Source: Polaromonas sp. (GTDB lineage Bacteria > Pseudomonadota > Gammaproteobacteria > Burkholderiales > Burkholderiaceae_C). From it: a stretch of DNA of 64,000 bases. Of this stretch, positions 29,458-45,016 are shown in pieces (positions within the stretch are counted from its first letter, which is position 1; the number at the start of each line of letters is the position of its first letter). Made by a program: the position numbers and the translations under genes. The notes beneath the pieces were generated by a model. The model had not been told where the DNA came from. It saw only the letters and a program-made list of their open reading frames with translations, and did not search any database. The stretch is taken from positions 62,001-126,000 of the forward strand of contig NZ_JAUYEY010000027.1 of NCBI RefSeq assembly GCF_030689685.1, read 5' to 3'.

Positions 29458-30132
29458 GTGAGCATATCCACAGAACCCCACGCCTTCAGCGCCGCCGAGC
29501 AACAGGCGGTGTACCGCGCTATTTACGAGCGGCGCGACATGCGCCACTTCAGCGGAGGCACGGTGGCTGACGACGTGCTGCAGCGGCTGCTGTCTGCCGC
29601 GCACCACGCGCCCAGTGTGGGCCTGATGCAGCCCTGGCGTTTTATCCGCGTGTCCAGCCAGCCGCTGCGCGAGGAACTGCATGCACTGATAGAGCAGGAA
29701 CGGGTGCTGACGGCGCGTGCTTTGGGCGAGCGCGAAGGCGAGTTCATGAAGCTCAAGGTGCAGGGCGTGCTCGACGCGGCCGAGGTACTGGTGGTTGCCC
29801 TGCCGCCGGGGCGCGAGAAACATGTGTTCGGCCGCCGTACGCTGCCGCAGATGGATCTGGCCTCCGCCGCCTGTGCCATCCAGAACCTATGGCTGGCGGC
29901 CCGCGCCGAAGGGCTGGGGATGGGCTGGGTATCGCTGTTTGATCCGGCTGCCGTCGGTGCGCTGTTGCAGATGCCAGCCGGCGCCGAACCGATTGCCGTT
30001 TTGTGCCTGGGCCCGGTCCCGGCGTTTTACGGGCAGCCCATGCTGCAAGCTGAAAAATGGGCGAGCCGCTCTGCGCTGGCCGACATGGTGTTTGAAGACC
30101 GTTGGGGCCAGTTGGCAGCTTCTGCCAACTGA
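29458..30132 (+). CDS. bluB: 5,6-dimethylbenzimidazole synthase BluB
   Basis: Oxygen-dependent flavoenzyme that cannibalises FMN to make the lower ligand of B12. The 224-residue nitroreductase-fold protein has YERRDMRHFSGGTV (residues about 24-37), SAAHHAPSVGLMQPWRFI, the later AACAIQNLWLAARAEGLGMGW and a PFYGQPM-like end (FYGQPMLQAEKW). The start is GTG at 29458. BluB needs O2, so the host is at least microaerobic while using the cobalt-early ring pathway. It is the last gene before the defence island. Confidence 0.93.
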   Translation: MSISTEPHAFSAAEQQAVYRAIYERRDMRHFSGGTVADDVLQRLLSAAHHAPSVGLMQPWRFIRVSSQPLREELHALIEQERVLTARALGEREGEFMKLKVQGVLDAAEVLVVALPPGREKHVFGRRTLPQMDLASAACAIQNLWLAARAEGLGMGWVSLFDPAAVGALLQMPAGAEPIAVLCLGPVPAFYGQPMLQAEKWASRSALADMVFEDRWGQLAASAN

Positions 30133-30217
30133 TTTTTCGCCGTGCGGCCAGCTACGTATAGCCGCGAAGGGTGCTTGACGGATGGGTAGTTGCTGCTTGC
30201 TTGTCAGTCAAGCGCTA

Positions 30218-30270
30218 TTAATTTGGTAGCTGCCTACGCATGTATCTAAAGGGCTGGAGGCCGATTTGAT
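30218..30270 (+). repeat. Interspersed repeat family A (intergenic, near full)
   Basis: ATTAATTTGGTAGCTGCCTACGC, a short loop, then AAAGGGCTGGAGGCCGATTTG: the full family A core in plus orientation. It lies in the 505-base gap between bluB and mod, which otherwise holds a mobile-element remnant and a decayed jetD tail. Confidence 0.7.
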
Positions 30271-30322
30271 GTGTATTTTTGGTCTTTCTCAGGTTTTTGG
30301 CCGGTTCGAAGACCGGAATTCA

Positions 30323-30479
30323 GGCCTTGATCCAATACTGTTCGCTTAAGGCATTGTCCCCGACTTGTCATCCCGGACTCGATCCGGGATCCATGGATTG
30401 CGGGTGCCCGGATCAAGTCCGGGCCAGGCTCTGCCCGCAATGACAAATTCTCGCAAGCGAACAGTATTGGGCCTTGGTC
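30323..30479. mobile_element. MITE-like element with terminal inverted repeats and target duplication
   Basis: A 137-base element (30333-30469) bounded by the inverted repeat CAATACTGTTCGCTT and AAGCGAACAGTATTG, flanked by an imperfect 10-base direct repeat (GGCCTTGATC left, GGCCTTGGTC right). The inside holds nested palindromes (ATCCGGGAT; CCCGGATCAAGTCCGGG) and no coding capacity. A related, right-end-less copy is at 58641. The repeat and duplication lengths fit passive mobilisation by an IS4-like transposase; family assignment is inference. Confidence 0.7.
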
Positions 30480-30598
30480 CATGACCTCGGCTGCACGACT
30501 CTCGATCAGATGCCCCGCACTATCCTGCGCGCAATCGGTTTGAATGTATTGGTTTTGGCTGGGTAGAACAGGCGCTGGCGGCCCTGGACACGGTATAA
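30480..30598 (+). pseudogene. Remnant of a jetD 3' end
   Basis: Conceptual translation of 30533-30598 reads NRFECIGFGWVEQALAAL then DTV and a stop. The intact jetD ends with NRIRAGLRLEQERIGFGWVCQALAAL split by only a few changes and a deletion of about 8 codons. Before it, LGCTTLDQM (30485-30511) resembles the THGFAMLDQL region of jetD. The rest of that gene is gone and no open frame remains. It marks an older jetD-type copy at the other end of the defence island. Confidence 0.6.
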
Positions 30599-30637
30599 AC
30601 GCAGGTACTCGCAAAAAAAGACCAAACAAGGCATTCC

Positions 30638-33544
30638 ATGGCAACCCGCAAACCCGCTAGCAGCCCCAACTCAAAGGCCAAATCAAGCCTAGCGACCACT
30701 GCCTCGTACCAGCACAGCGAGGCCAAGGCCATCATTCGCCCCGAGGCAGGCGCGCAAACCCGTTTTAAAAAGAAAAAGCCTGCCGCCACCTGGCGCTACG
30801 ACTCGTCGCTGGCCCCCGAGCTGCAATGGGATGCACAAAACCCGGCCCGCGAGCAGGGCGAGGCGCGCATTGCGGCATTGCAGGCCGCCATGGCTGCCAT
30901 GCAGGCCACCCTGGTTGATGTCCAGTCGCAGCTGGCTGCGGCGCAGCCCAGCCAAAGCGCCGCAGAGCTGAGCGCACTGCTGCTGCAAACCAGGGCCAAA
31001 CTGACCACGCTGCAAAACGAGCCGCTGCGGGCGGGGCGAGAGGCCGCCGCAGCATTGAAATCCATGTCCCGGCCTTTTTTGAACTGGGCCGGCAAGGCCG
31101 AGCGTTTGAGCTTTGACGTGCCCACGCTGCCCATGTTTATTCATGAGCGGCTGTCCACCCAGGCGATTCTGGACTCGGTGTCGCGCCACAAGCTCTCAAG
31201 CCAGGGCGACTGGGTGAACGAGTTTTTTGGCCACCCCGAGCGCAGCCTGCCCGAGCAGCTGATGAAGGCTTACGAGCACCCCAACGGCTGGCAAAACCGC
31301 ATGGTGCTGGGCGATTCGCTGGTGGTGATGAACTCGATGCTGCATTATGAAAACATGGGCGGTCAGGTGCAGATGGCCTACATTGACCCGCCGTATGGGG
31401 TGAAGTTTGGCAGCAACTTTCAGCCCTTTGTGCGCAAGCGCGACGTAACCCACAACGACGATGAGGGCCTGACCCGCGAGCCCGAAATGGTCAAAGCCTA
31501 CCGCGACACCTGGGAGCTGGGCCTGCATTCTTACCTGACTTACCTGCGCGACCGGCTGCTGCTGACGCGCGAGCTGCTGGCGGAAAGCGGCTCGGTGTTT
31601 GTGCAGATCTCGGATGAGAATTTGCACCATGTGCGGGAGGTGATGGATGAGGTGTTTGGGGCGGAGAATTTTGTCGCCGTGATTGCAGTACAGAAGACTG
31701 GAAGCCAGGCAGGGCAATTACTGGGTATAACGCTCGACTACCTCATTTGGTACGCAAAAAATAAGGCGGGCGTGAAATATCGCCAACTCTATGAGCATCG
31801 AAAGGCAGGCGATACCTCTCTTGATCGCTACGACCAAATTGAGATTCCTTCTGGTTCGATTCGCCGCCTGACTGCAAACGAAATTCGCGGAGAGGAGCCG
31901 TTGCCTGAAGGTCGTCGGTTTCGCTTGACTAGTTTGTTTAGCGATGGCGCTTCCGAGCGTGGGAGCTTCGACTACAACTTTCTCGGGAAAAAGTACGCCT
32001 GTGCCAAAAACAGCCATTGGAAGACGAACGAGGCGGGACTCAATGTACTTGAATTGCATGGACGTTTGTCAATTGAAGGTACTCGGCTTCGATACAAACG
32101 TTACGCTGAAGATTTTCCTGTTATCCCTGTAAATGATCGATGGGATTCAATGCAAATTGGTACGGGTTTGCTTTATGCGGTTCAAACCAGCCCGGCTGTG
32201 ATTCAGCGCTGCATGCTGATGACCACCGACCCCGGCGACCTCGTACTAGACCCTACTTGCGGCAGCGGCACCACCGCCGTAGTCGCCGAAAGCTGGGGCC
32301 GGCGCTGGATCACCATAGACACCTCGCGTGTGCCGCTGGCCCTGGCCCGGCAACGCCTGCTGACCGCCACCTTCAAATACTGGGACTTGAAAGAACCGCA
32401 CCGCGGCCCGGCGGGCGGCTTTGTCTATAAAGAAAAGAAGAACAAAAAAGGCGAGCATGTGGGCGGCATCGTGCCGCACATCACGCTGGGCTCAATAGCC
32501 AACAATGAGCCACCCAAATACGAAGTGCTGGTAGACCGGCCCGAGGTCAACAGCGGTGTCACTCGTGTTTGTGGCCCGTTTGTGTTTGAGGCGACGATTC
32601 CGACGGCCAGTAATTTTGATGGGGAAGATTCGGGTGCGGGGGAGAGGGAGTCAAGACGGGCAGGGGGGCAAGACGCGCAAGACTTTGTGGACCGCATGAT
32701 TGAGGTGCTGCGGTCTTCGCCGGTGCTGCATCTGGCTGGCGGCAAAACAGTGCAGCTCTCAGGCATTCGTCGCCCGGCAAAAACGCTGTTTCTGGCGGCT
32801 GAGGCCATGGTCAGCTCATCTGAAGGCATGGCGGGTGCGCTGGAAGATGCGGATGCAGCCAATGGCGGCCTGGCATTGCAACAAGGTGAGCCCGTGGCGC
32901 TGATGTTTGGCCCTGAATACGGCCCGGTGGCCGAGGTGGCGGTGCTGCAGGCCTGGCAAGAGGCCACGGCCAAGGCGTTTACGCATCTGTACGTGATTGG
33001 CTTTGCCATTGAGCCCAAGGCGCGCCAGTCGATTGGCGAATATTCGGCCATGGGCATGCCCACCACCTATGTGCAAGCCACGCCTGACATCCTGATGGGC
33101 GACCTGCTGAAAAACATGCGCTCGTCGCAAATCTTTTCGGTCTGCGGCCAGCCCGACGTGGCGGTGCGTACCATCGCCACGCCCGAGGGCGGCATCGCGG
33201 GGCAAAGCTATTACGAGGTGCAGCTGCGCGGGCTGGATGTGTTTGACCCGGTGACGATGGACCTGGACACCCGCAGCGGCCTGGACGTGCCGGCCTGGTT
33301 TTTGGACACCGACTACAACGGCCTGGTGTTTCGCGTTTGTCAGGCGTTTTTTCCGCGCACGCAGGCCTGGGACAACCTCAAGCGTGCGCTGAAGGCCGAC
33401 TTTGACGAGTCAGTATGGGCGCATCTGGCGGGCGATACGTCCACACCGTTTAACGTGGGCCAGCACCGGCAGATTGCGGTGAAGGTGATTGACGACCGGG
33501 GCAATGAGCTGATGGTGGTGAAGAAGCTGGAGGGTGCGCAATGA
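30638..33544 (+). CDS. mod: Type III-like restriction-modification DNA methyltransferase (Mod)
   Basis: Adenine-specific DNA methyltransferase of the beta-class, 968 residues. Motif IV is YIDPPYGVKFGSNFQPF near residue 250, and motif I LVLDPTCGSGTTAVVAESWG comes later, near 537; the target recognition domain lies between, at about 345-505. That segment (DNA 31685-32165) is clearly richer in A+T than the flanks. An N-terminal part of 150 residues (Ala/Gln-rich helices) and a C-terminal part of about 350 residues extend the core. First gene of a tight three-gene operon; overlaps the next by 4 bases. Confidence 0.9.
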   Translation: MATRKPASSPNSKAKSSLATTASYQHSEAKAIIRPEAGAQTRFKKKKPAATWRYDSSLAPELQWDAQNPAREQGEARIAALQAAMAAMQATLVDVQSQLAAAQPSQSAAELSALLLQTRAKLTTLQNEPLRAGREAAAALKSMSRPFLNWAGKAERLSFDVPTLPMFIHERLSTQAILDSVSRHKLSSQGDWVNEFFGHPERSLPEQLMKAYEHPNGWQNRMVLGDSLVVMNSMLHYENMGGQVQMAYIDPPYGVKFGSNFQPFVRKRDVTHNDDEGLTREPEMVKAYRDTWELGLHSYLTYLRDRLLLTRELLAESGSVFVQISDENLHHVREVMDEVFGAENFVAVIAVQKTGSQAGQLLGITLDYLIWYAKNKAGVKYRQLYEHRKAGDTSLDRYDQIEIPSGSIRRLTANEIRGEEPLPEGRRFRLTSLFSDGASERGSFDYNFLGKKYACAKNSHWKTNEAGLNVLELHGRLSIEGTRLRYKRYAEDFPVIPVNDRWDSMQIGTGLLYAVQTSPAVIQRCMLMTTDPGDLVLDPTCGSGTTAVVAESWGRRWITIDTSRVPLALARQRLLTATFKYWDLKEPHRGPAGGFVYKEKKNKKGEHVGGIVPHITLGSIANNEPPKYEVLVDRPEVNSGVTRVCGPFVFEATIPTASNFDGEDSGAGERESRRAGGQDAQDFVDRMIEVLRSSPVLHLAGGKTVQLSGIRRPAKTLFLAAEAMVSSSEGMAGALEDADAANGGLALQQGEPVALMFGPEYGPVAEVAVLQAWQEATAKAFTHLYVIGFAIEPKARQSIGEYSAMGMPTTYVQATPDILMGDLLKNMRSSQIFSVCGQPDVAVRTIATPEGGIAGQSYYEVQLRGLDVFDPVTMDLDTRSGLDVPAWFLDTDYNGLVFRVCQAFFPRTQAWDNLKRALKADFDESVWAHLAGDTSTPFNVGQHRQIAVKVIDDRGNELMVVKKLEGAQ

Positions 33545-35244
33545 TTCGGCTAGTCACACTCAAAGACTTCAAGCTGTTTGGCAACGTTGAGTTCCCCATT
33601 CCTGGCCATGTGGTTCTGGCTGGGCCGAACAATACCGGTAAAACAACGCTGTTGCAGGCAATTGCGGCCTGGGAACTGGGCTTTAGGAAGTGGCTGGAGT
33701 TGAATGATTTTAATCCCCGCGTTAATGGCTACCCGTGGCAGGAACTGGAGCGTCTTAACTTCTCACCCGTAGCCGTGCGTTCGTTTGACTTGTTATGGAA
33801 AAATAGAAAGAGGAAGCAGTCGTTTGAGATTGGTGTGCAGGTCGATGGATTGCCTCTTGTTACGCTGGAATTTTTTTATCAAAGCGCCGGGTCTATCAGC
33901 GTTCGGCCTAAAAATGATGCCGCGCTCAACGCGACCATCTTGAGAAAATCCGCACTTCGGTTTCAGACCACATTTATCCCGGCCATGTCGGGCTTGTCGA
34001 GATCCGAGCAACGCCTGGCCGACCAAGAAGCCATTGATTCCGCTCTGGCTCAAGGTCGCCCTGGCGAGGTGCTGCGCAATTTGCTCTACATCGCGCACCA
34101 GGACGAGGCAGCCTGGCGCACCTTGAATGCGACGATGCAAAGGCTGTTCTCATGTCGGCTGGAAACACCTAAAAGTGGCGCCGAGCTGTTATGCGAATAC
34201 CGGCAGGGCAATGCGGCAGACGCGCCTTTTTTTGATGTGGCAAGCGCAGGCAGTGGTTTTTTGCAGGTCTTGCTGTTGTTGACGCTGCTGCTCACGCAGT
34301 CAAAGCGGGCCGATGGAACTCATGCGGTGTTGCTGATAGACGAGCCTGATGCTCACTTGCACATGATGCTTCAGCGCAGTATTTACGGCGAACTGCGCTC
34401 AATCGCGGCAAGTAGGCAAGCGCAACTGTTCGTAGCTACGCACTCCGAAATGATCGTCAATAACATCGACTCGCGTGAGCTGTATCTCATGTACGGTGTC
34501 CCCCGGTTAATTCAAAGCGACCTGGAGCGTGCGCAATTAACGACCTCATTCGGCGCCCTGACTCACAGCGACATTTTGGAAGCTGAGGGTGCCAAAGGTG
34601 TTCTATATACCGAGGACTTTACCGATATTGATATTCTCGAAGCCTTTGCCCGCGTGCTAAATGACGCCGCAGCGTTGAAGCTTTTGACAAGGGAGTTGGT
34701 AACCAAGTCATCCAAGGCGCCTTTACCCGACGGTTTGGGAGAATTCAGTCCACAAAAACATTGGGACATGCTCAAACTTGTTCGCAGTGACTTGCCAGCG
34801 CTGGAGTTGTTGGACGGCGATAACCAAAAAAACAAAGCACCGGATTCCATCACGGGTACGGCCGACAGCCTACAGCGCCTGCGCTGGCGCCGCTATGAAA
34901 TTGAAAGCTATTTGCTGCTTGAGGGGCCGCTGCAACGCTTTTTTGAAAAACGGCTGGGCGGGGTTGATGCCGCAGCCATTGCGGTGGCTGAACTGCAGAA
35001 GAGACTTGCTTTCATTGCGGGAAAAGATGAATCAGATCCTTTGGTGAAAAGTTATTTTCAAAGCGAACCATTGAGTAAAACCTTGCTGCCAGAACTGATG
35101 GTGGCAGCGGGGCTGGATGCGCCAAAACGCGACTACTTTGAGATCGCCGCTCAGTTCAAACCAGAAGAAATTCACCCCGAAATCATCGAGCGCTTGAACC
35201 AGATCAAACAGGCTTTTGGGGTGCTTGGAGTCGCGAATGTTTGA
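33541..35244 (+). CDS. OLD-like ATPase (AAA_15/TOPRIM-type), between mod and res
   Basis: A 567-residue ATPase of the SMC/ABC-like group. Walker A is LAGPNNTGKTTLLQA (near residue 29), Walker B VLLIDEPDAHLHMML (near 262), followed by LFVATHSEMIVNNID. The C-terminal half has a TOPRIM-like arrangement: VLYTEDFTDIDILEAF (near 354), LELLDGDNQKNK (near 421) and WRRYEIESYLLLEG, the Glu-containing motif common after the TOPRIM of OLD-family nucleases. It may therefore cut DNA, though the first acidic motif is not canonical. It overlaps mod by 4 bases and res by 8, so it is a true operon member; classic type III systems lack such a subunit. Confidence 0.8.
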   Translation: MIRLVTLKDFKLFGNVEFPIPGHVVLAGPNNTGKTTLLQAIAAWELGFRKWLELNDFNPRVNGYPWQELERLNFSPVAVRSFDLLWKNRKRKQSFEIGVQVDGLPLVTLEFFYQSAGSISVRPKNDAALNATILRKSALRFQTTFIPAMSGLSRSEQRLADQEAIDSALAQGRPGEVLRNLLYIAHQDEAAWRTLNATMQRLFSCRLETPKSGAELLCEYRQGNAADAPFFDVASAGSGFLQVLLLLTLLLTQSKRADGTHAVLLIDEPDAHLHMMLQRSIYGELRSIAASRQAQLFVATHSEMIVNNIDSRELYLMYGVPRLIQSDLERAQLTTSFGALTHSDILEAEGAKGVLYTEDFTDIDILEAFARVLNDAAALKLLTRELVTKSSKAPLPDGLGEFSPQKHWDMLKLVRSDLPALELLDGDNQKNKAPDSITGTADSLQRLRWRRYEIESYLLLEGPLQRFFEKRLGGVDAAAIAVAELQKRLAFIAGKDESDPLVKSYFQSEPLSKTLLPELMVAAGLDAPKRDYFEIAAQFKPEEIHPEIIERLNQIKQAFGVLGVANV

Positions 35245-38200
35245 CTTCCAGGTCGAAAGCCCCATCGCCAATTCGCCCTTTTTGGCGCCACTCCGGCATT
35301 GGCAGATTGAAGAAGGCACGCCGCCAGTGCTGGCTCAAGAACGCCGCAAGCCGGTTTACTTTTACCGGCCTCCCAGCTACGAGGTGTCTAAAGAGGGCAT
35401 GGAAGAGGATGTGGGCTACCAGATTGAGCTGTTGCTGGTCTCACGCATACGCAGCCGCCTGGCGGAGTGGCGCGCGGCAGGCTACCCTGGTGCGTCCAAA
35501 ATCACACTGGAGCTGTTGGCCTACTGGGAACGTGAGGGGCGTGAAAAGCGCCTTTTCTTTGCGCAAAGGGAAGCGGCGCAAACAGTGATTTTTTTAACCG
35601 AGGCGCGGGCTGATTTTCTGCAGGGCATTCATGTCCCGACGGACGAGCCCTCCGACAAACAAAAGGCCGAAGGCATTCAAGCCTTTCAGCGCTATGCCTG
35701 CAAGATGGCCACTGGCAGCGGCAAAACCACGGTCATGGGTATGTTGGTGGCCTGGAGCATTTTGAATCGGCAAGCCGGTGGACATGACCGCAGCCGGGCG
35801 CGCCTGTTCTCCAATACGGTGGTTGTGGTCTGCCCCAATGTGACGATTCGCAGCCGCCTGGCAGAGCTGGACCCAGCCCGTGGCGAAGCCAGTTTGTACC
35901 GCAGCCGCGACCTGGTGCCTGCGCATCTGATGGGGCCGTTGTCGCAGGGCCGGGTGCTGGTGATGAACTGGCATGTGTTTGCCCTGCACGATGCCAACAA
36001 GGTAGGCGGAACAGCTGCCAAAGTAGTGCGCACCGGGCGCGAAGTCAATGTGATGGAGAGCATTCGCATTGGCGATAAAACCACCACCGCCAGGGGCACG
36101 CGCTATCTGTCGCTTCCTGATTATCAGCGTCAGGTGGCAGCAGGCCTGCTGGAAGTGCTGAAGGAAGAACTTGATGCAAGCGGCTCACTGGTGCGGGCCC
36201 AGGTGGCCAGCACGCGTTATGTGGAGTCTGATGCTGCCTGGCTGGAGCGTGTGCTGGGCATAAAGTCGGGGCGACGCGCCAATGTGCTGGTGCTCAACGA
36301 TGAGGCACATCATGCCTACCGTATTCGTTCGGAAGAGCCTGACGAGTTTGAGGAAGCCGACGACGAAGGCTTTGAGGACTATTACAAAGAGGCCACGGTT
36401 TGGGTCGAGGGACTGGACCGTATGCACAAACAGGTGGGTATCAATACCTGCATAGACTTTTCGGCTACGCCCTATTTTTTAGGGCGTGTGGGTGAGCAGG
36501 CAAACCGGCCATTTCCATGGGTGGTGTCTAGTTTTGATCTGATGGAAGCCATTGAGTCGGGCTTGACCAAGATTCCGCAGTTTGCGGTGCGCGATATGTC
36601 GGGGCAGTCTATTCCGGGCTACTTCAATATCTGGCGCTGGATATTGCCGCAGTTAAAGGCGTCTGAGCGTGGTGGCAAAAAAAGTGCTGCCAAGCCGGAA
36701 GCCATTTTGCGTTACGCATACACACCCATCGTTATGCTGGGAGGCTTGTGGCAGCAGGTGGCACGCGACTGGAAGGAGGCCGGTACTGACCCTAGGCCGC
36801 CGGTTTTCATTTTGGTGTGTAAAAACACGAAGCTGGCCAAGGTGGTGTTCGACTGGCTGGCCGACGACAATCCGCCACCGGGCATTCCCTCTGCAGGACT
36901 GCCGGATTTTCGCAACCAAAATGGAGTCATCAACACAATTCGGGTTGATTCCAACGTGGTGTCAGAAACCGATTCGGGTGATGCCAAGTCTGATTTGAAC
37001 GCATGGATGCGCCACACGCTGGACACGGTGGGTCGCCTGGACTGGCCTTCTGATGCACAGGGCAGCCCGCTTTACCCGGAAGGTTTTGTGGCGTTGGCCG
37101 AAAAGCTGGGCAAGGCCTTGCACCCGCCGGGCCGTGATGTGCGCGCCATTGTCAGTGTTGGCATGCTCACTGAGGGCTGGGACTGCAACACGGTGACCCA
37201 CATTGTGGGGTTGCGTCCTTTCATGTCGCAACTGCTTTGCGAGCAGGTAGTGGGACGCGGTCTGCGGCGTGCCAGCTACGAAACAGACGGCGAGGGAGAA
37301 AACGAGCGGTTGGGCGAAGAAATAGCCCAGGTGTTTGGCGTACCGTTTCAGGTCGTTCCCTTCAAGGCGACTCAAGGCGGCGCGCCCAAGCCGCCGGTTA
37401 AAACCTGGCGTGTCAGGGCGCTGCCCGAGCGGGCTGATCTGGAGATTCGGTTCCCGCGGGTAGAGGGTTTTGTGTTTGAGCCGAGTAGTGATGTTCAAGT
37501 GGACTGGAGCCGTGTAGAAGCACTGGTGATTGATCCCACACAGATTCCGCCCGAGGTGCAAATGAAGGCGGGTTTTGCCACCAATGATGGTCGGCCTACC
37601 TTGTATGGACCCGGTCGGCTGGATATGGCAAGTCTTGCGCAATATCGCGCTGGGCGGCGTATGCAGTCGCGGGTGGCCGAGGCTGCCAGGGAATTGGTCA
37701 AGGTGTACATGGGTCAAGCCGATGAGGCCACATCGTTAATTCATCCGGGTCGGCTTTATCCGCAGTTTGTGAAACTGATAGGCCAATTCGTAGCAACCAA
37801 AGTCGAGGCGCATCAGCCCGCAGCGCTTGAGGACGTGTTTTCGGCTCCCTACTACGGGCTGATGTTTGAACGCTTATTGGCAAGCATCTCCCCAGCCCAA
37901 GGCGGGCACGAGGGCATTCGGGTGGAGCGCCATCGTGGCCCGGGCACCACCGCGGAGGTGGAGTACGTCACCCGCAAAGAGCCCTATGCGGTGGCCAAAA
38001 GCCATGTCAACTATGTGGTGCCTGATTCCCAATGGGAGCGCGTTGCAGCCTATGCGCTGGACACGCATCCGGCAGTTCGCAGTTTTGTGAAAAACAGTGG
38101 CCTGGGGTTTGCCATACCCTATCTTCATGCTGGGCAAGGCCATGACTATTTGCCTGATTTTGTGGTGCAACTCAGCGCCCCGGCTGATCGGCACGTGATT

Positions 38201-38410
38201 GTGGAAACAAAAGGGTATGACGACCGACTGGCTGAAAAACACGCGGCTGCGCTGCGTTGGGTTTCTGCCGTGAATCAGGACGGGCGCTATGGGCGCTGGG
38301 ATTATTTGATGCTGCGCGACAAGGCAAAAATCGCAGAGGAAATTGGCGAAAAATTCGCGGCACTCTTGGATTCATCGGGCTTTCCGGCGCAGCGCGGCAT
38401 TGAAGACTGA
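35237..38410 (+). CDS. res: Type III-like restriction enzyme Res subunit (helicase-nuclease)
   Basis: A 1057-residue restriction subunit: superfamily 2 helicase with Walker A KMATGSGKTTVMGML (near residue 157), DEAH-type box LNDEAHHAYRI (near 353), FSATPYF, and motif VI region CEQVVGRGLRRASYE. The C-terminus has a PD-(D/E)XK nuclease: DYLPDFVVQL then HVIVETKGYDD (residues about 970-992). The ATG at 35237 lies 8 bases inside the ATPase gene; an in-frame ATG at 35216 is less likely. It should translocate or cleave DNA that Mod has not methylated. It ends [11 protein letters not shown]. Confidence 0.9.
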   Translation: MFDFQVESPIANSPFLAPLRHWQIEEGTPPVLAQERRKPVYFYRPPSYEVSKEGMEEDVGYQIELLLVSRIRSRLAEWRAAGYPGASKITLELLAYWEREGREKRLFFAQREAAQTVIFLTEARADFLQGIHVPTDEPSDKQKAEGIQAFQRYACKMATGSGKTTVMGMLVAWSILNRQAGGHDRSRARLFSNTVVVVCPNVTIRSRLAELDPARGEASLYRSRDLVPAHLMGPLSQGRVLVMNWHVFALHDANKVGGTAAKVVRTGREVNVMESIRIGDKTTTARGTRYLSLPDYQRQVAAGLLEVLKEELDASGSLVRAQVASTRYVESDAAWLERVLGIKSGRRANVLVLNDEAHHAYRIRSEEPDEFEEADDEGFEDYYKEATVWVEGLDRMHKQVGINTCIDFSATPYFLGRVGEQANRPFPWVVSSFDLMEAIESGLTKIPQFAVRDMSGQSIPGYFNIWRWILPQLKASERGGKKSAAKPEAILRYAYTPIVMLGGLWQQVARDWKEAGTDPRPPVFILVCKNTKLAKVVFDWLADDNPPPGIPSAGLPDFRNQNGVINTIRVDSNVVSETDSGDAKSDLNAWMRHTLDTVGRLDWPSDAQGSPLYPEGFVALAEKLGKALHPPGRDVRAIVSVGMLTEGWDCNTVTHIVGLRPFMSQLLCEQVVGRGLRRASYETDGEGENERLGEEIAQVFGVPFQVVPFKATQGGAPKPPVKTWRVRALPERADLEIRFPRVEGFVFEPSSDVQVDWSRVEALVIDPTQIPPEVQMKAGFATNDGRPTLYGPGRLDMASLAQYRAGRRMQSRVAEAARELVKVYMGQADEATSLIHPGRLYPQFVKLIGQFVATKVEAHQPAALEDVFSAPYYGLMFERLLASISPAQGGHEGIRVERHRGPGTTAEVEYVTRKEPYAVAKSHVNYVVPDSQWERVAAYALDTHPAVRSFVKNSGLGFAIPYLHAGQGHDYLPDFVVQLSAPADRHVIVETKGYDDRLAEKHAAALRWVSAVNQDGRYGRWDYLMLRDKAKIAEEIGEKFAALLDSSGFPAQRGIED

Positions 38411-38445
38411 AGAATCCGATGCGAATGATGTATCCGATTTTGTGT

Positions 38446-38463
38446 GTCAAATTGACGTACAAT
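38446..38463 (+). promoter_or_regulatory. Promoter/operator of the tacAT pair
   Basis: GTCAA-A-TTGAC (38446-38456), a perfect dyad, abuts a -10 TACAAT (38458-38463), 20 bases before the tacA ATG. A ribbon-helix-helix antitoxin such as TacA would be expected to bind such a dyad and repress its own operon. Confidence 0.45.
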
Positions 38464-38482
38464 TTTCGAAAAAGAGCAAGTT

Positions 38483-38755
38483 ATGCCTTCCACCACCCCT
38501 GCAGCCGAATCCGCCAGAATCAACCTTCGAACCAGCCCGGAAGCCAAAGCGCTGATCGAGCGGGCTGCCGCCATCATGGGTTCCACGGTTTCCAGTTTCA
38601 TGTTGCAAAACGCTTATGAAGCGGCGAGCCGTGTTGTCACCCAACAGGAAGTAATCACCTTGTCAGACCGGGATCGCGACGCTTTCCTGGACGCACTGGA
38701 CAACCCGCCTGAACCCACGCCAGCTCTCATTGCATTAATGCGCGCAAGGACATGA
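38483..38755 (+). CDS. tacA: TacA-type antitoxin (DUF1778, ribbon-helix-helix)
   Basis: A 90-residue antitoxin. The N-terminal DUF1778 RHH fold is visible (ARINLRTSPEAKALIERAAA, residues about 11-30, then MGSTVSSFMLQNAYEAA), and the C-terminal part (LSDRDRDAFLDALDNPPEPT) is the usual toxin-neutralising tail. It stands directly before the GNAT toxin with a 4-base overlap and follows a promoter with a dyad. It should hold the toxin inactive and repress the operon. Confidence 0.9.
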   Translation: MPSTTPAAESARINLRTSPEAKALIERAAAIMGSTVSSFMLQNAYEAASRVVTQQEVITLSDRDRDAFLDALDNPPEPTPALIALMRART

Positions 38756-39258
38756 CGCTTGTCATCTCCGCGCTGGAGCGTCACCATGACCGCAACGACT
38801 TTGACTGCGGCGAGGCGGCACTCAACCATTTTTTGCAGCGTCTGGCCCGCCAGCATGCTGATAAAGACTTCAACCGCACTTATGTGGCCGTCGAGCAAGG
38901 CGAAGCGCAAATACGGGGCTTTTACGCCATCAGCTCGGCTTCCATCGACTTTGAAAATTGGCCCGCTGCGTTGCGTTTGCCGCGCTATCCCGTGCCGGTT
39001 GTTCGTATTGGCCGCTTGGGCGTTGATTTGCGCGCACAGGGCAAGGGCATAGGCGTCGCCTTGTTGCGCCATGCCATGCATCTGGCCGCATCAACCGCTG
39101 AAAAAATCGGTTTGTTTGCTGTTGTGGTGGATGCCCAAAACAAAGCAGCTGCCAGCTTCTATGCGCGTTACGGTTTTCAGAGTTTTCCTGACAGAAGCTT
39201 GAGTTTGTTTTTGATGACAGATGTCTTCAAGCGCGCACTGGCGGCTTCCAGGCCCTGA
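38752..39258 (+). CDS. tacT: TacT-type GNAT acetyltransferase toxin
   Basis: A 168-residue GNAT toxin; TacT-family toxins block translation by acetylating the amino group of aminoacyl-tRNA. It has the acceptor-domain elements FDCGEAALNHFLQRLARQHA (residues about 17-36) typical of TacT, then the acetyl-CoA loop IGRLGVDLRAQGKGIGVALL with the Q/R-x-x-G-x-G/A signature, and FYARYGFQSFPDR near the end with the catalytic Tyr. The toxin overlaps its antitoxin and ends 6 bases before jetA. Confidence 0.9.
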   Translation: MTLVISALERHHDRNDFDCGEAALNHFLQRLARQHADKDFNRTYVAVEQGEAQIRGFYAISSASIDFENWPAALRLPRYPVPVVRIGRLGVDLRAQGKGIGVALLRHAMHLAASTAEKIGLFAVVVDAQNKAAASFYARYGFQSFPDRSLSLFLMTDVFKRALAASRP

Positions 39259-39264
39259 CTTTTT

Positions 39265-40743
39265 ATGCCGCTCGATTACCACACGCTGGACCTGCTGCGC
39301 CGCCAACATCCCGCCTGGCGCTTGCTGGCAGCTGAACATGCGCCTTTGGTGGCCAGCTTTTTGCACCGGGCCTTTGTTGCGCCCAACGTGCGCGTGATGG
39401 CGCAGGCTGCCCTGGTCGAGGCGCTGAACGACACGCTGTATGCCATTCATGAGCTGGCCTTCGAGAAGGCCACTCCGAAATTTCCCAAGTCGGCGCTGGA
39501 GTACCTGAACGATTGGGCCGCCAATGAAAAAGCCTGGCTGCGCAAGTTTTACCCGCCGGGCTCTGATGAGCCGCATTTTGACCTCACCCCGGCCACCGAG
39601 CGCGCACTGGCCTGGCTCGTCAATCTGTCTGACCGTGCTTTTGTCGGAACCGAGTCACGGCTTTTGATGCTGTTTGAGCTGCTCAAACAAATCAGCGAAG
39701 GCAGCGACACCAACCCGGAGACGCGCCTGGCCGAGCTGCACAAACGCAAGGATGACATTGACGCCGAGATCGCGCTTGTGCTGAGCGGCAACATGCCGCT
39801 GCTGGATGACACCGCAGTCAAGGACCGCTTTCAGCAATTCGACCGGCTGGCCAAAGAGCTGCTTGGCGACTTCAGGGAAGTGGAGCAAAACTTTCGCACG
39901 CTGGATCGCCGGGTGCGTGAGCGCATTGCGCTCTGGGATGGCCGTCATCAGGCGGATGCTGCGCAGGGCCGTGGCGCCTTGCTCGAAAGCATCCTCGGAG
40001 AGCGCGATGCCATCAGCGATTCTGATCAAGGCAAAAGCTTTCAGGCTTTCTGGGATTTTTTAATGTCGCAGTCGCGCCAGGAAGAGCTGACCGCGCTGCT
40101 TGAGCGTGTGCTGGCTTTGCCGCCCGTCGCTGCCATGTCGCCCGACAAGCGCCTGCGGCGGGTGCACTACGACTGGCTGCAGGCCGGCGAACACGCGCAG
40201 CGCACGGTGGCCCTGCTGTCGCAGCAATTGCGGCGCTTTTTAGACGACCAGGCCTGGCTTGAAAACCGGCGCATCATGGACTTGCTGCGCGGCATTGAAG
40301 CCAAAGCTTTGAGCCTGCGCGATGCGCCACCGCAGGGTCTCGTCCACAGCGTCAACGCGCTCGGCCCCCGCGTCGAGTTGCCCATGGAGCGGCCCCTGTA
40401 CAGCGTGCCGGTCAAAACAATCCTGAGCAATGTGAAGCTTGAAACGGGGGACGCCGATGTCGATGCAGACGCCTTGTTTTCTCAGGTCAGGGTGGACAAG
40501 GCGGCACTGGCCAGCCACATCCGCCAGTCGCTGCAAACCCGCGCGCAGATCAGCCTGGGCGAGCTGCTGCAGGCCCGGCCCTTGCAGCAGGGCCTGGGTG
40601 AACTGGTGGCCTACCTTCAACTGGCCAGTGCGCCCGCACAATCCGTCATCGATGAGGACACGCTTGAAACCGTGCGCTGGACGGCTGCCGATGGTGTCCT
40701 TCGCAGCGCGAAGCTACAGCGCGTTATTTTTGTGAGGACTTGA
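39265..40743 (+). CDS. jetA: Wadjet anti-plasmid system subunit JetA (DUF3375)
   Basis: A 492-residue DUF3375 protein, the kleisin-type subunit of the Wadjet SMC complex. It opens DYHTLDLLRRQHPAWRLLAA, as family members do, and has LVNLSDRAFVGTESRLLMLF and MSPDKRLRRVHYDWLQAGEH. Wadjet senses and cleaves small circular DNA, so it acts mainly against plasmids. It is the first of four ordered jet genes; it starts 6 bases after tacT and its stop lies 2 bases before the jetB ATG. Confidence 0.92.
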   Translation: MPLDYHTLDLLRRQHPAWRLLAAEHAPLVASFLHRAFVAPNVRVMAQAALVEALNDTLYAIHELAFEKATPKFPKSALEYLNDWAANEKAWLRKFYPPGSDEPHFDLTPATERALAWLVNLSDRAFVGTESRLLMLFELLKQISEGSDTNPETRLAELHKRKDDIDAEIALVLSGNMPLLDDTAVKDRFQQFDRLAKELLGDFREVEQNFRTLDRRVRERIALWDGRHQADAAQGRGALLESILGERDAISDSDQGKSFQAFWDFLMSQSRQEELTALLERVLALPPVAAMSPDKRLRRVHYDWLQAGEHAQRTVALLSQQLRRFLDDQAWLENRRIMDLLRGIEAKALSLRDAPPQGLVHSVNALGPRVELPMERPLYSVPVKTILSNVKLETGDADVDADALFSQVRVDKAALASHIRQSLQTRAQISLGELLQARPLQQGLGELVAYLQLASAPAQSVIDEDTLETVRWTAADGVLRSAKLQRVIFVRT

Positions 40744-40745
40744 CG

Positions 40746-41414
40746 ATGGACCTGCAACCCGAGGCAGACCCGAATGCCGTGCCGTCAGATGCGCCGCCAG
40801 CCGCTCCCCAGTACGACTTGACAGCGCTGGTCGTGCCCTTGCTTAAAGGCGTGCTCTACCGTGAAGACGATGCAACGCTCTGGCAAGCGCTGCTCAAGCT
40901 GCAAAGCCGGGTGCGAGATTACACGTCGGTGTTGGCGCTGGAACTGGTGCTTGACGAAGCCGAGGGTTATGCCTTTTTGCGGTCCCGCCCAGAACCCGAA
41001 GACGACGAAAGCCCCAAGCTTCCGCGCCTGGTGCGCCGCCAGCCTTTGACCTTTCATGTCAGCGTGCTTTTGGCCTTGCTGCGTAAAAAGCTTGCCGAGT
41101 TTGATGCCAGCGGGGGTGATACGCGGCTGATTTTGTCCCGCGATGCCGTGGTCGAGCTGATTCGCGTCTTTTTACCTGCTGGCTCCAATGAATCACGCCT
41201 GATTGACAACGTCGATGCGCACCTGAACAAGGTTGTGGAGTTGGGTTTTGTGCGTCGTCTCAAGCCATCGGCTGGCGGGCAAGAGGCCATGTATGAAGTG
41301 CGGCGCATTTTGAAAGCTTTTGTCGATGCGCAATGGCTGGCCGATTTTGACCAGCGCCTGGCGCTGTATCAGGCGCAGTTGTTAATGCCGCAAACGGAAG
41401 ATGCTGATGAATAG
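40746..41414 (+). CDS. jetB: Wadjet subunit JetB (DUF4194)
   Basis: A 222-residue DUF4194 protein, the MukE-like winged-helix subunit of the Wadjet complex. Recognisable parts are [20 protein letters not shown] (near residue 30), the [20 protein letters not shown] helix pair, and [16 protein letters not shown]. The ATG at 40746 follows the jetA stop directly; a TTG at 40740 would overlap it. Its end overlaps jetC by 14 bases, so jetB and jetC are translationally linked. Confidence 0.9.
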
Positions 41415-44400
41415 TCCTGATTGGTTTGCGGCGGAATCCGCTTCTGAACTACTCCATCTCCCGCTTGCGGGAGAGGGCGGGGGTGAGGGGGAACCCCTGG
41501 CCGGCTTTCGTCTCATGCACCTTGAAGTTCTCAACTGGGGCACCTTTGACAAGCGCGTCTGGGCACTCAACCTGGATGGCCGCAACGGGCTGCTCACAGG
41601 TGACATCGGCTCAGGCAAGTCCACGCTGGTTGATGCCGTCACCACGCTGCTGGTGCCGACCCAGCGCATCGCCTACAACAAGGCCGCCGGGGCCGATGCC
41701 AGGGAACGCACTTTGCGCTCTTACGTGCTGGGGCACTTCAAGTCTGAGCGCAACGAGGCCAGTGGCCATGCCAAGCCCGTGGCCCTGCGCGATGCCAGCT
41801 CCTACTCGGTGATTTTGGGTGTCTTTCACAACGCGAGTTTGAAGCAAACGGTTTCGCTGGTGCAGGTGTTTTGGCTAAAGGACGGTCTGGGCCAGCCCGA
41901 GCGGTTTTATGCGGTGGCAGACAAACGCCTGGGTATTGCCACTGACTTTTCAAACATTGGAACGACGGTGACGGCCTTGCGCGCGCGCCTGCGCAAGGGC
42001 GGCGCGGAGTTGTTTGACACCTTTCCAGGCTATGGGGCCGAGTTTCGCCGCCGCTTTGGCATTGACGGCGAGCAGGCGCTGGAGCTGTTTCACCAGACCG
42101 TCTCGATGAAGTCAGTCGGCAATTTGACTGACTTTGTGCGCCACCACATGCTGGAGCCTTTTGATGTGCAGCCCCGCATCAATGGCCTGATTGCCCATTT
42201 TGACGACTTGAACCGCGCCCACGCCGCTGTACTCAAGGCCAAACGCCAGCTTGAGCTGTTGACGCCGCTGGTGGCGGATTGCGACAAACACGCACAATTG
42301 CTGGCCAGTATTGAAGCCCTGCGCGATGCGCGCGAAGCCTTGCGGCCTTACTTTGCCGGATTGAAGCTGGGCTTGCTCGACGTTCGCCTGCAGACCCTGG
42401 CCGATACCCTGGAAACTGAAAGCGGAAAGGAAGAAAAACTGGAGCGGCTCAGATCGGAGCAACAACTCCAGATGCGCGAGCAGCGTGATGCCATTGCCCG
42501 CAACGGCGGCGACCGGATCGCCCAGATTGAAGCGGATATGGACCGCCAGCAGCGCGAGGCCGACATCCGCAAAGGCAAGGCAGCGCGCTACGATGAGCTG
42601 CGCAAACAGCTGGGCTTGCTACAGGTCAGCAGCATGGAAGACTTGCTGGTGCAGCAGCAAACCTGCACACAAAAACGCATTGAAGAGCAAGACCGCAGCG
42701 CCGCCGTGCAAAACGACTGGATTGAGAAAAGCGCGGACTTTCGCCAGGGCAATGACGAGCACAAGCTGCTCGCCGGGGAAATTGCCAGCCTCAAAAGCCG
42801 CCGCAGCAACATCGACACGCAGCAAATTGCCATCCGCGCCGCGCTGTGCCAGGCCACGGGTTACACCGAGGCGTCCATGCCTTTTGCGGGCGAACTCATT
42901 GAGGTGCGCGAGGCCGAGCGTGACTGGGAGGGCGCGATAGAGCGCCTGATGCACAACTTTGGCTTGTCGCTGCTGGTGCCTGAAGCGCAATACGCGAAGG
43001 TGGCCGAGTGGGTGAACAACACCCATTTGAAAGGGCGCCTGGTGTACTTCAAGGTGCCGCAGGCTGTGCGCGGCGGTTTGCCTGGCCTTCACCCGGATTC
43101 GCTGGTGCGCAAGATCACCGTCAAACCCGATTCGGCTTTTTACAATTGGCTTGACCGTGCGGTTCATGAGCGGTTCGATCTGGCCTGCTGCAGCACGCAA
43201 GAGCAGTTCCGGCGCGAGGACAAGGCAATCACGCGCAGCGGACAAATCAAAAGCACACTGCGCCATGAAAAAGACGACCGTCATCACATTGAGGACCGCA
43301 GCCGCTATGTGCTGGGCTGGAGCAATGCCAATAAGCTTGGCGCATTACAAGTCAAGGCCAGGCTGCTGGAGGACAAGTTGGGGCGAATTGGCGGGCTGAT
43401 CTCAGCTTGTGAAGCGGAAAAGCGCGCCATCGACAGCCAGCTTTCTGCCCTCGACAAGATCGTCGAATTTCAGGACTATCGCGAGCTGGACTGGCCCAGC
43501 CTGGCCCTGGAAATAGCCCGCCTTCGTCAAGAGCTGGAGCAAATCAAGGCCGCATCGGACGTTTTGAAAACGTTGACCGAGCGTCTGGAATCGCTTGAGA
43601 AAATCTTGGCGGCGACTGAGAAAAAATTACAGGAACAAATAGAGCGCCGAGCCAGGACCGAGCAAAAAATTGACGAGGCACAAACGCTGCGTGAGCACAC
43701 GGTGCAAACCGTTACGCAGCTGGATGCCCAAGCTGTTTCACCAGCGGTGCTTGAGCGCCTTGCGCAGTTGCAAACCGAATCAGCCACGGGTCAAACGCTG
43801 ACGGTAGAGCTTTGCGGTCCGGTGGAGAGCGACCTGCGCGACAGCCTGCAACGCTCGATGGATGCCGAGACGCTGCGGGCCAACCGCTTGCTGGGCAAGA
43901 TCAGCGCCGCCATGAGCAATTTCTCCAGTGAGTTTCCGCTGGAGACGCGCGAGATGGACGTGGCCATTGAGGCGGCTGGCGAATACCGCAAGCTCTTGAA
44001 CCAGCTGGCGCTGGACGACTTGCCGCGTTTTGAAGCGAAATTTCAGGAGCTGCTCAAAGTCAACACCATCCGCGAGCTGGCCAATTTCAGCACGCAGTTG
44101 CGCATGGAAAGCGACCTCATCAAAGAGCGCATTGACCGCATCAACCAGTCACTGGCGCAGATCGACTACAACCCTGGCCGCTTTATCGTGCTGCAAGCGC
44201 AAAAAGCCCTGGATGTTGAAGTGCGTGACTTTCAAACCGAGTTGCGGGCCTGCCTGGATGGCTCTTTATCGGGCGATGTAACAGGCGCTCCATCAGCAGA
44301 AGACGGCCAATACTCCGAGGCCAAGTTTTTGCAGGTCAAGGCCATCATCGAGCGCCTGCGCGGGCGCACCGGGCAAACAGACCAGGACCGCCGCTGGACC

Positions 44401-44862
44401 GCCAAAGTCACCGATGTGCGCAACTGGTTTGTGTTTGCCGCAAGCGAGTGTTGGCACGAGGATGGCCGCGAACACGAGCATTATTCTGACTCCGGCGGCA
44501 AATCCGGCGGGCAAAAAGAAAAACTCGCCTACACCATTTTGGCGGCCAGCCTGGCCTACCAGTTTGGCTTGGACTGGACGGCGGGTGGTGCCGACGCCGA
44601 TGGCCAGCGCGCCCGCAGCTTTCGCTTTGTGGTGATTGATGAAGCCTTTGGCCGAGGCTCAGACGAGTCAGCGCAATACGGGCTGGAGCTGTTTGAAAAG
44701 CTCAACCTGCAGTTGCTGATCGTCACGCCTCTGCAAAAAATACACATCATTGAGCCCTTTGTTTCCACCGTGGGTTTTGTGCAAAACGACGAAGGCAGGG
44801 ATTCGAAGTTGCGCAACTTGACGATTGAGGAATACCGGGCGGAGAAGGCGCTGAGGGCATGA
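41401..44862 (+). CDS. jetC: Wadjet subunit JetC (MukB/SMC-like ATPase)
   Basis: The motor subunit, 1153 residues: Walker [19 protein letters not shown] (near residue 64), long coiled-coil arms (about 300-500 and 690-960) around a hinge, the signature [14 protein letters not shown] (near 1029) and Walker [19 protein letters not shown] (near 1075). It should extrude DNA loops for JetD to cut. Residues about 18-31 ([13 protein letters not shown]), before the first ATPase strand, are encoded by a family B palindromic repeat and are not expected in the family; the true start may be downstream, for example at the Met in [12 protein letters not shown]. Confidence 0.92.
41452..41497. repeat. Palindromic repeat family B at the 5' end of jetC
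   Basis: CTCCATCTCCCGCTTGCGGG followed by AGAGGGCGGGGGTGAGGGGG, the same module as in btuF and cobQ. In the jetC frame it encodes [16 protein letters not shown], just before the ATPase domain. Confidence 0.75.
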
Positions 44863-44880
44863 TGCTGGAGCCTGCACTTT

Positions 44881-45000
44881 CTGGCTCCTTCCCCCGCTGG
44901 GGGAAGGCAGGGATGGGGGCCAGCAGCCTCAACCATCAGCACCTGTTTGCCCACGCCGAAAGCCCCCATCCCAACCTTCCCCCAAAGGCGGGAAGGAGAA
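44881..45000. repeat. Two inverted G/C-run palindromic repeats between jetC and jetD
   Basis: CTCCTTCCCCCGCTGGGGGAAGG-type sequence (44884-44920, with the tail CAGGGATGGGGGC) and its inverted partner (44961-45000: GCCCCCATCCCAACCTTCCCCC...GGGAAGGAG). The pair fills most of the 154-base gap and could fold into one long hairpin that weakens jetD expression. It is related to family B but has longer G/C runs. Confidence 0.65.
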
Positions 45001-45016
45001 ATTTGCAGATTCGCTT

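What the first reader, a model, noticed from the sequence alone, without database searches (positions are those of the whole stretch)
30638..38410. Three-gene mod / OLD-like ATPase / res operon, a possible undescribed variant of type III restriction
Classic type III systems need only Mod and Res. Here a 567-aa ATPase with Walker A/B, a TOPRIM-like C-terminal half and the WRRYEIESYLL motif is encoded between them, overlapping mod by 4 bases and res by 8. Such tight coupling argues for a stoichiometric third subunit. OLD-family nucleases are known in other defence systems (for example Gabija GajA), so a combined modification, sensing and cutting machine is plausible.
Basis: partly seen in the sequence, partly recalled or inferred. 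Interest (0 to 1): 0.72.

Follow-up and report, generated by a model that had tools for sequence, protein, structure and literature searches.

The report
Swappable nuclease gene inside restriction operon
The gene between the two halves of this bacterial DNA-restriction operon looks like an optional, exchangeable anti-virus module, probably a back-up alarm, rather than a third working part of the restriction enzyme.

Summary
The operon is real. mod (30638-33544), a 567-aa OLD/ABC-type ATPase with a TOPRIM-like C-terminus (33541-35244) and res (ATG 35237-38410) overlap by 4 and 8 nt as described. Res belongs to the named BPTD_3080 family. Six of six close ATPases found with the window protein alone, the window's own included, lie downstream of mod and upstream of res, so the association is genuine. 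In 38 related mod-res loci found from Res, the gap held this ATPase in 5, nothing in 17, and other genes in 16, among them modules matching the defence systems PD-T4-4 and HEC-01. Two loci with 99%-identical Res carry unrelated cargo (one contig starts within mod, so an assembly caveat remains). Two loci with about 95%-identical Mod and Res carry ATPases only 51% alike. Between the window and its nearest kin the variable Mod region differs while the ATPase is kept. Distant cousins sit in another type III, a type I and a BREX operon. Best reading: an embedded, interchangeable defence module, probably a PrrC/PARIS-like guard. New variant of a known kind.

The parts
30109..30131 (+). terminator-like hairpin after the preceding cobalamin (bluB-like) gene
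   Evidence: 9 such patterns found in the region where shuffles give 11.5 on average, so weak
30638..33544 (+). mod: type III DNA methyltransferase, 968 aa
   Evidence: PF01555 98 bits; PADLOC MTase_III 490 bits
31718..32257 (+). approximate variable region of Mod (probably target recognition), exchanged between close relatives
   Evidence: pairwise alignment columns 361-540: 26-47% identical among window/L067/L068, 100% between L111 and L112; called target recognition by position and variability only
33541..35244 (+). embedded ABC-type (OLD/AriA-like) ATPase with TOPRIM-like C-terminus, 567 aa
   Evidence: AAA_21 80 bits, AAA_15 64 bits; alignment A1
33622..33648 (+). Walker A, GPNNTGKTT (residues 28-36)
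   Evidence: G28, N30, N31, G33, K34, T35 invariant in 10 sequences; P29, T32, T36 vary
34327..34350 (+). Walker B, VLLIDEPD (residues 263-270)
   Evidence: DEPD invariant in 10 sequences
34576..34917 (+). TOPRIM-like core: E358 / D362 / D425 / D427 and W449-xx-YE-x-E-x-Y457
   Evidence: D362, D425, D427, W449, Y452, E453, E455, Y457 invariant and E358 in 9 of 10; in the wider set of 16 the second D of DxD is not kept in 3; profile match to a BREX-embedded cousin, hhalign 92%
35237..38410 (+). res: type III-like restriction helicase-nuclease, BPTD_3080 family
   Evidence: NF046055 952 bits, cut-off 800; ResIII 23.5 bits (cut-off 22.5), RE_endonuc 16.7 below its cut-off 23.4

Best explanation
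The 567-aa protein is an optional, interchangeable anti-phage module embedded between mod and res of a BPTD_3080-family type III restriction-modification operon. Mod and Res do the modification and restriction on their own. The ATPase half most likely senses, directly or through Mod/Res, that restriction has been inhibited or bypassed, and then frees its TOPRIM-like nuclease half to cut nucleic acid (tRNA, if it works like PARIS AriB or PrrC) and stop the infection: a type III counterpart of a restriction guard. Shown here: gene order, conserved ATPase and TOPRIM-like motifs, optional presence, cassette and allele exchange at constant flanks, independence from the variable region of Mod, and recurrence of cousins in other modification-based operons. 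Inferred: the guard role, the trigger, the nuclease activity, its target, and that Mod plus Res work alone.
For: One-sided dependence. With the window protein alone, close relatives were found in L066-L068 and in G527 and G521 (150 genomes of the order); with the window's own that is 6 of 6 downstream of mod and upstream of a BPTD_3080 res. G640 is a seventh, found by a profile that already contained it. From the Res side 5 of 38 mod-res loci have it, 17 have nothing in the slot and 16 have something else. Other cargo includes matches to known defence modules: PD-T4-4 ATPase (6 of 6 scanned, 338-388 bits) and HEC-01 (4 of 4 loci scanned, ATPase 232-601 bits), GmrSD_N 102 bits, PIN, ParE, ThiF/JAB. 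Exchange at constant flanks: L090 and L091 have Res 99.2% identical and the 55 bp before the break identical, but HEC-01 in one and this ATPase in the other, with joins in the last codons of mod and at the res start codon. L111 and L112 have Mod 94.4%, Res 95.6%, ATPase 50.7%, with DNA identity falling at the ATPase gene and rising again in res. In L067 and L068 a PD-T4-4-type ATPase plus a 184-189-aa gene lie exactly between mod and the ATPase. Cousins: between mod and res of a canonical type III system (L192), before hsdR (L095), after a type IIG-like enzyme (L096), between pglX and pglZ of a Nostoc BREX operon (L205). Literature, passages read: OLD-ABC/TOPRIM back-up effectors in BREX (PMC12839542), toxin-like domains in type I and III RM systems (PMC3506569).
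Against: No DUF4435 (the PARIS effector family) is found in the window protein at E up to 1; its own C-terminus matches no Pfam or PADLOC family at the thresholds used; a profile of 16 C-termini finds no PDB chain. E358 is D in L112, and in L144, L145 and L192 the second D of DxD is not kept, so not every relative need be an active nuclease. Nothing shows that the ATPase senses restriction failure rather than a phage signal of its own. L090 is a 5-kb contig of a draft genome that begins exactly 55 bp into the shared stretch, so an assembly effect cannot be wholly excluded; L112 is from a one-contig genome, L111 from a 100-contig one. Of the 8 assessable distant cousins, 6 show no RM genes nearby by eye. 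One search scored at most 3 candidates a genome and at most 9, so further copies outside RM operons could have been missed.
Confidence: 0.53

Rival explanations
1. An autonomous anti-phage system (HEC-04, PARIS or Gabija type) with its own phage trigger, merely embedded in the operon for shared expression and transfer; it does not sense the restriction system at all.
For: The same slot carries PD-T4-4-, HEC-01- and GmrSD-like modules, families also known outside this operon; 6 of 8 assessable distant cousins show no RM genes nearby by eye. HEC-04, an ABC ATPase fused to TOPRIM and embedded in Hma loci, is reported to defend against T4 and T5 (PMC12111858, passages read).
Against: The close subfamily was found only in mod-res operons: 6 of 6 with the window protein alone. 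A free-standing module should also turn up alone.
Confidence: 0.3
2. A stoichiometric third subunit of a new type III enzyme.
For: Overlapping genes and a close subfamily seen only in this operon.
Against: Absent from 5 of 9 Res-first loci with Res at least 50% identical; 51%-identical ATPases beside about 95%-identical Mod and Res; HEC-01 instead of it beside 99%-identical Res.
Confidence: 0.08
3. A regulator or addiction element that stabilises the operon by harming cells that lose mod or res, with no part in phage defence.
For: Close subfamily seen only in this operon and toxin-like genes (PIN, ParE) in the same slot elsewhere.
Against: Other slot contents match named anti-phage modules. 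An addiction gene gives no obvious reason for allele exchange (inference).
Confidence: 0.06

Closest known systems
PARIS (AriA/AriB, also as single-gene fusion)
   Same: OLD-type ABC ATPase plus TOPRIM nuclease; seven of 16 relatives' C-termini match PADLOC AriAB; a BREX-embedded cousin matches AriAB with 110 bits across both domains
   Different: no DUF4435 match in the window protein; sits inside a type III RM operon; trigger unknown
HEC-04 and other embedded candidates (2024 preprint, seen only as cited or described in PMC12111858, PMC12255303, PMC12988326)
   Same: ABC ATPase fused to TOPRIM, embedded in another defence operon
   Different: host operon is Hma there, type III RM here; no HEC-04 row among the best 25 shown of 144 PADLOC matches of the window protein, the rest not seen
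PrrC in EcoprrI (type IC RM)
   Same: ABC NTPase plus nuclease in one protein, encoded within an RM operon (PMC12707154, PMC3506569, passages read); the guard logic is carried over by analogy
   Different: PrrC's nuclease is a HEPN-type anticodon nuclease; no such match here
OLD-ABC/TOPRIM back-up modules in BREX (PMC12839542, passages read)
   Same: same kind of module nested within a modification-based operon
   Different: described there for BREX and BREX-related systems; the passages read do not treat type III RM
Gabija GajA
   Same: ATPase and TOPRIM in one protein; profile match that reaches beyond Walker B
   Different: no GajB helicase neighbour; hhalign of the C-termini with a protein that I take to be Gabija-like from its UvrD neighbour gives only 4%

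Membership tests
Type III restriction-modification | Mod with N6/N4 methylase domain | tested here: met
   PF01555 98 bits, cut-off 26.7
Type III restriction-modification | Res with ResIII helicase and endonuclease domain | tested here: met
   NF046055 952 bits over its cut-off 800, ResIII 23.5 over 22.5; but RE_endonuc 16.7 is below its cut-off 23.4, so the endonuclease domain is the weaker part
Type III restriction-modification | restriction and methylation activity with two-site cleavage | not testable with these tools
   needs biochemistry
OLD-type ABC ATPase with TOPRIM | Walker A, Walker B, signature and His switch of OLD-ABC ATPases | tested here: met
   GPNNTGKTT, SAGSGFLQ, LLIDEPDAHLH, ATHSE present and largely conserved; PDB matches to OLD, GajA, AriA, PtuA; 'signature' and 'switch' are named from recall
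OLD-type ABC ATPase with TOPRIM | TOPRIM fold with E and DxD | tested here: inconclusive
   E358 in 9 of 10 and DxD in 10 of 10 close rows, second D lacking in 3 of 16 wider rows; relatives match AriAB, AriB, OLD-like_TOPRIM, the window C-terminus alone does not; no structure
PARIS | AAA_15 or AAA_21 domain | tested here: met
   64 and 80 bits
PARIS | DUF4435 (AriB) | tested here: not met
   no match at E up to 1 in the window protein; 1 of 16 relatives, E 0.0029
PARIS | triggered by anti-restriction protein, cuts tRNA | not testable with these tools
   needs experiment
Gabija | GajB UvrD-like helicase next to the ATPase | tested here: not met
   neighbours are mod and res
PrrC | HEPN-type anticodon nuclease domain | tested here: not met
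   no such Pfam match at E up to 1

The most novel reading that the evidence does not exclude
A guard family specialised for type III restriction systems: a fused OLD-ATPase/TOPRIM protein kept latent by Mod/Res, or triggered by phage inhibitors of type III enzymes, whose allele is exchanged between otherwise near-identical operons because phage inhibitors differ. It would be the type III equivalent of PrrC and PARIS, in an operon slot that works as a docking site for exchangeable back-up defences.
Probability: 0.38. Interest if true: 0.65.

Novelty: new variant of a known kind. Interest (0 to 1): 0.43.

Why it matters
Restriction guards with a known link to their restriction system are few: PrrC for type IC, PARIS for Ocr-type inhibition. 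A recurring, exchangeable ATPase/nuclease slot inside type III operons would extend this layered defence to type III systems. It also supplies natural experiments, near-identical Mod/Res with different guards, for asking what the guard senses. It cautions against reading gene overlap as proof of a shared complex.

Tried and rejected
Third-subunit reading: rejected on the absence and swap data. PARIS membership: not filed, because the DUF4435 test failed. Gabija: no helicase neighbour; hhalign 4%. PrrC membership: no HEPN match. Viral contigs: no Res relative confirmed; 35 ATPase relatives, all distant (best segments 23-38% identical). Annotated phages: no ATPase match. Plasmids: 869 records with an ATPase match, all under 60% identity and only 2 covering 80% of the query; two cousins as queries gave none at stricter limits; 45 records with a Res relative, of which 10 were opened. 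PDB search with the C-terminal profile: none. Promoter scan: none found, 3.5 expected in shuffles. Cobalamin-locus hotspot: the inserts of six other genus genomes (five of about 5 kb, one of 1.4 kb) are not defence genes by eye, so only the window and, in part, G057 show defence genes there.

Papers. Passages only were read of PMC10568477, PMC3506569, PMC9122126, PMC12707154, PMC12839542, PMC10853773, PMC12988326, PMC12137116, PMC12409363, PMC11411939, PMC12111858, PMC12255303. doi 10.1093/nar/gkaa726 (which I take from recall to be the 2020 ABC-ATPase classification) and PMC11464382 are not held. The embedded-defences preprint was seen only as cited. That this type III architecture is undescribed was looked for and not found in what those listings and passages showed; they cover open-licence papers only, and the two most relevant earlier surveys were not readable.
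Full report
What is there. The window lies in contig C22 (62001-126000) of a 4.1-Mb genome of 103 contigs; close relatives of its ATPase include one in a Rhodoferax MAG. mod (30638-33544, 968 aa), an ATPase (33541-35244, 567 aa) and res (ATG 35237-38410) follow each other on the + strand with overlaps of 4 and 8 nt. Mod carries PF01555 (98 bits). Res matches NCBIfam NF046055, 'BPTD_3080 family restriction endonuclease', with 952 bits over a cut-off of 800. The ATPase matches AAA_21 (80 bits) and AAA_15 (64 bits); its best PADLOC matches are general ATPase models (AriA 87 bits, NsnB 83, GajA 61).

The ATPase protein. Ten relatives align over their whole length. Walker A, an SAGSGFLQ motif, LLIDEPDAHLH and ATHSE are largely conserved, which I read (from recall) as the ABC-type ATPase of the OLD class. 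The C-terminal half keeps E358 (9 of 10, D in L112), D362, D425, D427 and W-xx-YE-x-E-x-Y. In a wider set of 16 C-termini the first D of DxD is invariant, but the second is not kept in L144, L145 and L192. Of these 16, 7 match PADLOC AriAB, 3 AriB, 3 Pfam OLD-like_TOPRIM, 3 DUF3226 and 1 DUF4435, but the window's own matches none, and their profile finds no PDB chain. hhalign of that profile against the ATPase embedded in a Nostoc BREX operon gives 92% (E 6e-7), aligning the E, DGD and EIENYLL motifs; that protein matches AriAB with 110 bits, the best stretch running from the ATPase into the C-terminal part. Against a protein that I take to be Gabija-like, hhalign gives only 4%. A TOPRIM-like nuclease is therefore likely but not shown. 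Structure prediction failed and was then switched off.

Association seen from the ATPase. A pattern scan of genome contigs (84,980 species genomes) with the window protein found three relatives (72-77% identical), each downstream of mod and upstream of res; such a scan reaches close relatives only. In 150 genomes of the order, the window protein alone found, besides itself, G527 (61%) and G521 (48%), both in mod-ATPase-res, and then a gap to four matches at 32-33%. That makes 6 of 6, window included. In 399 genomes of the order a profile of nine such ATPases gave four matches of 853-920 bits (window, G527, G521, G640), all in the slot, and nine of 144-341 bits; three of those four genomes had supplied rows of the profile, so G640 adds little as independent evidence (the window protein alone also finds it). 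The 87 genomes of the genus held only distant relatives besides the window's own (best 33%).

Association seen from Res. NF046055 was searched in 369, 399 and 398 genomes and the window's Res in plasmids. Of one search's 26 places over the cut-off, all 25 outside the window were fetched. Of a part was fetched (36 regions): none of those above 1,290 bits, because of the 11 such loci fetched first 10 had res before mod and 1 had no mod in the stretch, and not G987 or G1018. Ten of the 45 plasmid records were opened. Of the mod-then-res loci, 38 (window, L067 and L068 not counted) entered the tree: this ATPase in 5 (L085, L091, L111-L113), a PD-T4-4-type insert without it in 3, HEC-01-type in 4, other genes in 9, nothing that I recognised in 17 (L109 has a 505-nt gap). 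Dropped before the count: loci with broken or cut Res or poor Res identity (for example L066, L099, L108, L110, L114, L117, L129, L130, L136) and other loci without mod in the stretch. L086 and L088 were kept although mod lies off the contig, and L090 has only 55 bases of mod. L118/L141 have identical Res and L138/L139 nearly so, so the rows are not all independent. With Res at least 50% identical to the window's, 4 of 9 Res-first loci carry the ATPase, 1 HEC-01, 1 an unknown 354-aa gene, 3 nothing. On the tree (quick method, weak deep branches, one long branch) presence of this ATPase needs at least 4 changes and all cargo states 19; no shuffle control was run.

The slot holds known defence modules. 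The ATPases of the inserts in L067, L068, L083-L085 and L101 match PD-T4-4_A (338-388 bits; 6 of 6 scanned); their small partner genes matched nothing where scanned (L067, L083, L085), and a PD-(D/E)XK-like motif is seen by eye only. The ATPases in L080, L088, L090 and L102 match HEC-01 (232-601 bits; 4 of 4); the partner matches DUF4276 in L090 (58 bits) and just below the cut-off in L080, not scanned in the other two. L105 has GmrSD_N, L082 PIN_3, L100 ParE, L107 and L115 AAA_14+DUF4143, L086 ThiF/JAB, L103 Schlafen/AlbA, L140 DUF3800.

Natural swaps. (1) L090 and L091, from two genomes of one genus: Res 99.2% identical, res DNA 99.4% over 3,101 bp, 55 of 55 bp identical before the break, yet HEC-01 in one and this ATPase in the other; the joins lie in the last few codons of mod and at the res start codon. 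L090's contig begins exactly at that 55-bp stretch, a possible assembly-graph edge, so this pair carries a caveat. (2) L111 and L112: Mod 94.4% (columns 361-540 100%), Res 95.6%, ATPase 50.7%; L112's ATPase is as close to L091's (51.7%) as to L111's. In 60-column steps, DNA identity is 90-100% through most of the last 600 nt of mod, 33-77% (mostly near 55%) through the ATPase and 77-90% in res. L112 is from a one-contig genome. (3) Window, L067 and L068: Mod columns 361-540 are only 26-47% identical while the ATPases are 73-76% identical, and L067/L068 have the PD-T4-4-type insert at the boundary between mod and the ATPase. The ATPase therefore changes independently of Mod, Res and, presumably, DNA specificity.

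Cousins. Of the nine distant matches, one lies between mod and res of a different type III system (L192; Res with RE_endonuc 129 bits), one directly after mod of a res-mod operon (L199), one after an AAA_14/DUF4143 gene on a short contig (L193), five without RM genes nearby by eye (L194-L198), and one is cut by a contig end (L200). In the genus, one precedes hsdR (L095; HSDR_N 54 bits, the hsdS- and PIN-like neighbours read by eye), one follows an Eco57I/MmeI-like enzyme (L096), and one lies next to a jetD-like gene (L097). A plasmid BREX operon of Nostoc sp. ATCC 53789 has one (25% identical over 81%) between pglX and pglZ.

Reading. An essential subunit predicts presence with, and co-divergence with, Mod and Res; this is not seen. 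A free passenger predicts occurrence outside the operon; in the close subfamily this was not seen, within the limits of the searches. A module that needs the restriction system while the system does not need it fits both, and is what a guard would look like. Similar ideas are in print (passages read): toxin-like domains coupled to type I and III RM systems (PMC3506569), guardians PrrC and PARIS (PMC12707154), OLD-ABC/TOPRIM back-up effectors in BREX (PMC12839542), modules embedded in type I RM operons (PMC11411939, PMC12255303). Trigger, target and nuclease activity remain inferred.

Verdict. It is a new variant of a known kind, of moderate interest, with good natural material for experiments.

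Noticed in passing
window 39265-46183: Complete Wadjet type I locus: JetA, JetB, JetC, JetD with PADLOC scores 711, 308, 1532 and 474 bits. jetD overlaps the start of the cobalamin gene (cbiB-like) at 46159.
   Followed up: partly
window 38483-39258: TacA-like antitoxin (102 bits) and GNAT acetyltransferase pair between res and the Wadjet locus.
   Followed up: no
window 30133-46158: The whole island (type III RM, toxin-antitoxin, Wadjet) sits between bluB- and cbiB-like genes (named by eye). Of 36 genus genomes with both genes found, 32 have them on one contig; in 25 of these 32 the gap is at most 338 nt, in the window's genome 16,029 nt.
   Followed up: yes
L097 (G057 contig 43) 3012-6186: Another genome of the genus has a distant ATPase/TOPRIM cousin and a jetD-like gene (66% identical) just upstream of the cbiB-like gene, hinting at a shared insertion spot.
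   Followed up: partly
L205 6001-7878: Nostoc sp. ATCC 53789 plasmid BREX operon with an AriAB-like ATPase/TOPRIM gene between pglX and pglZ.
   Followed up: yes
L086 5234-9186: Multi-gene insert upstream of a BPTD_3080 res with a ThiF/JAB protein and an AAA_15 ATPase, resembling ubiquitin-like defence operons (from recall).
   Followed up: no
L136 2604-10057: Synechocystis sp. B12 plasmid: NYN-domain gene (record annotation) and OST-HTH/LOTUS gene between mod and a res whose frame is broken into several ORFs.
   Followed up: no
window 30350-30460: Upstream of mod, a stretch that looks like a long inverted repeat, seen by eye only.
   Followed up: no
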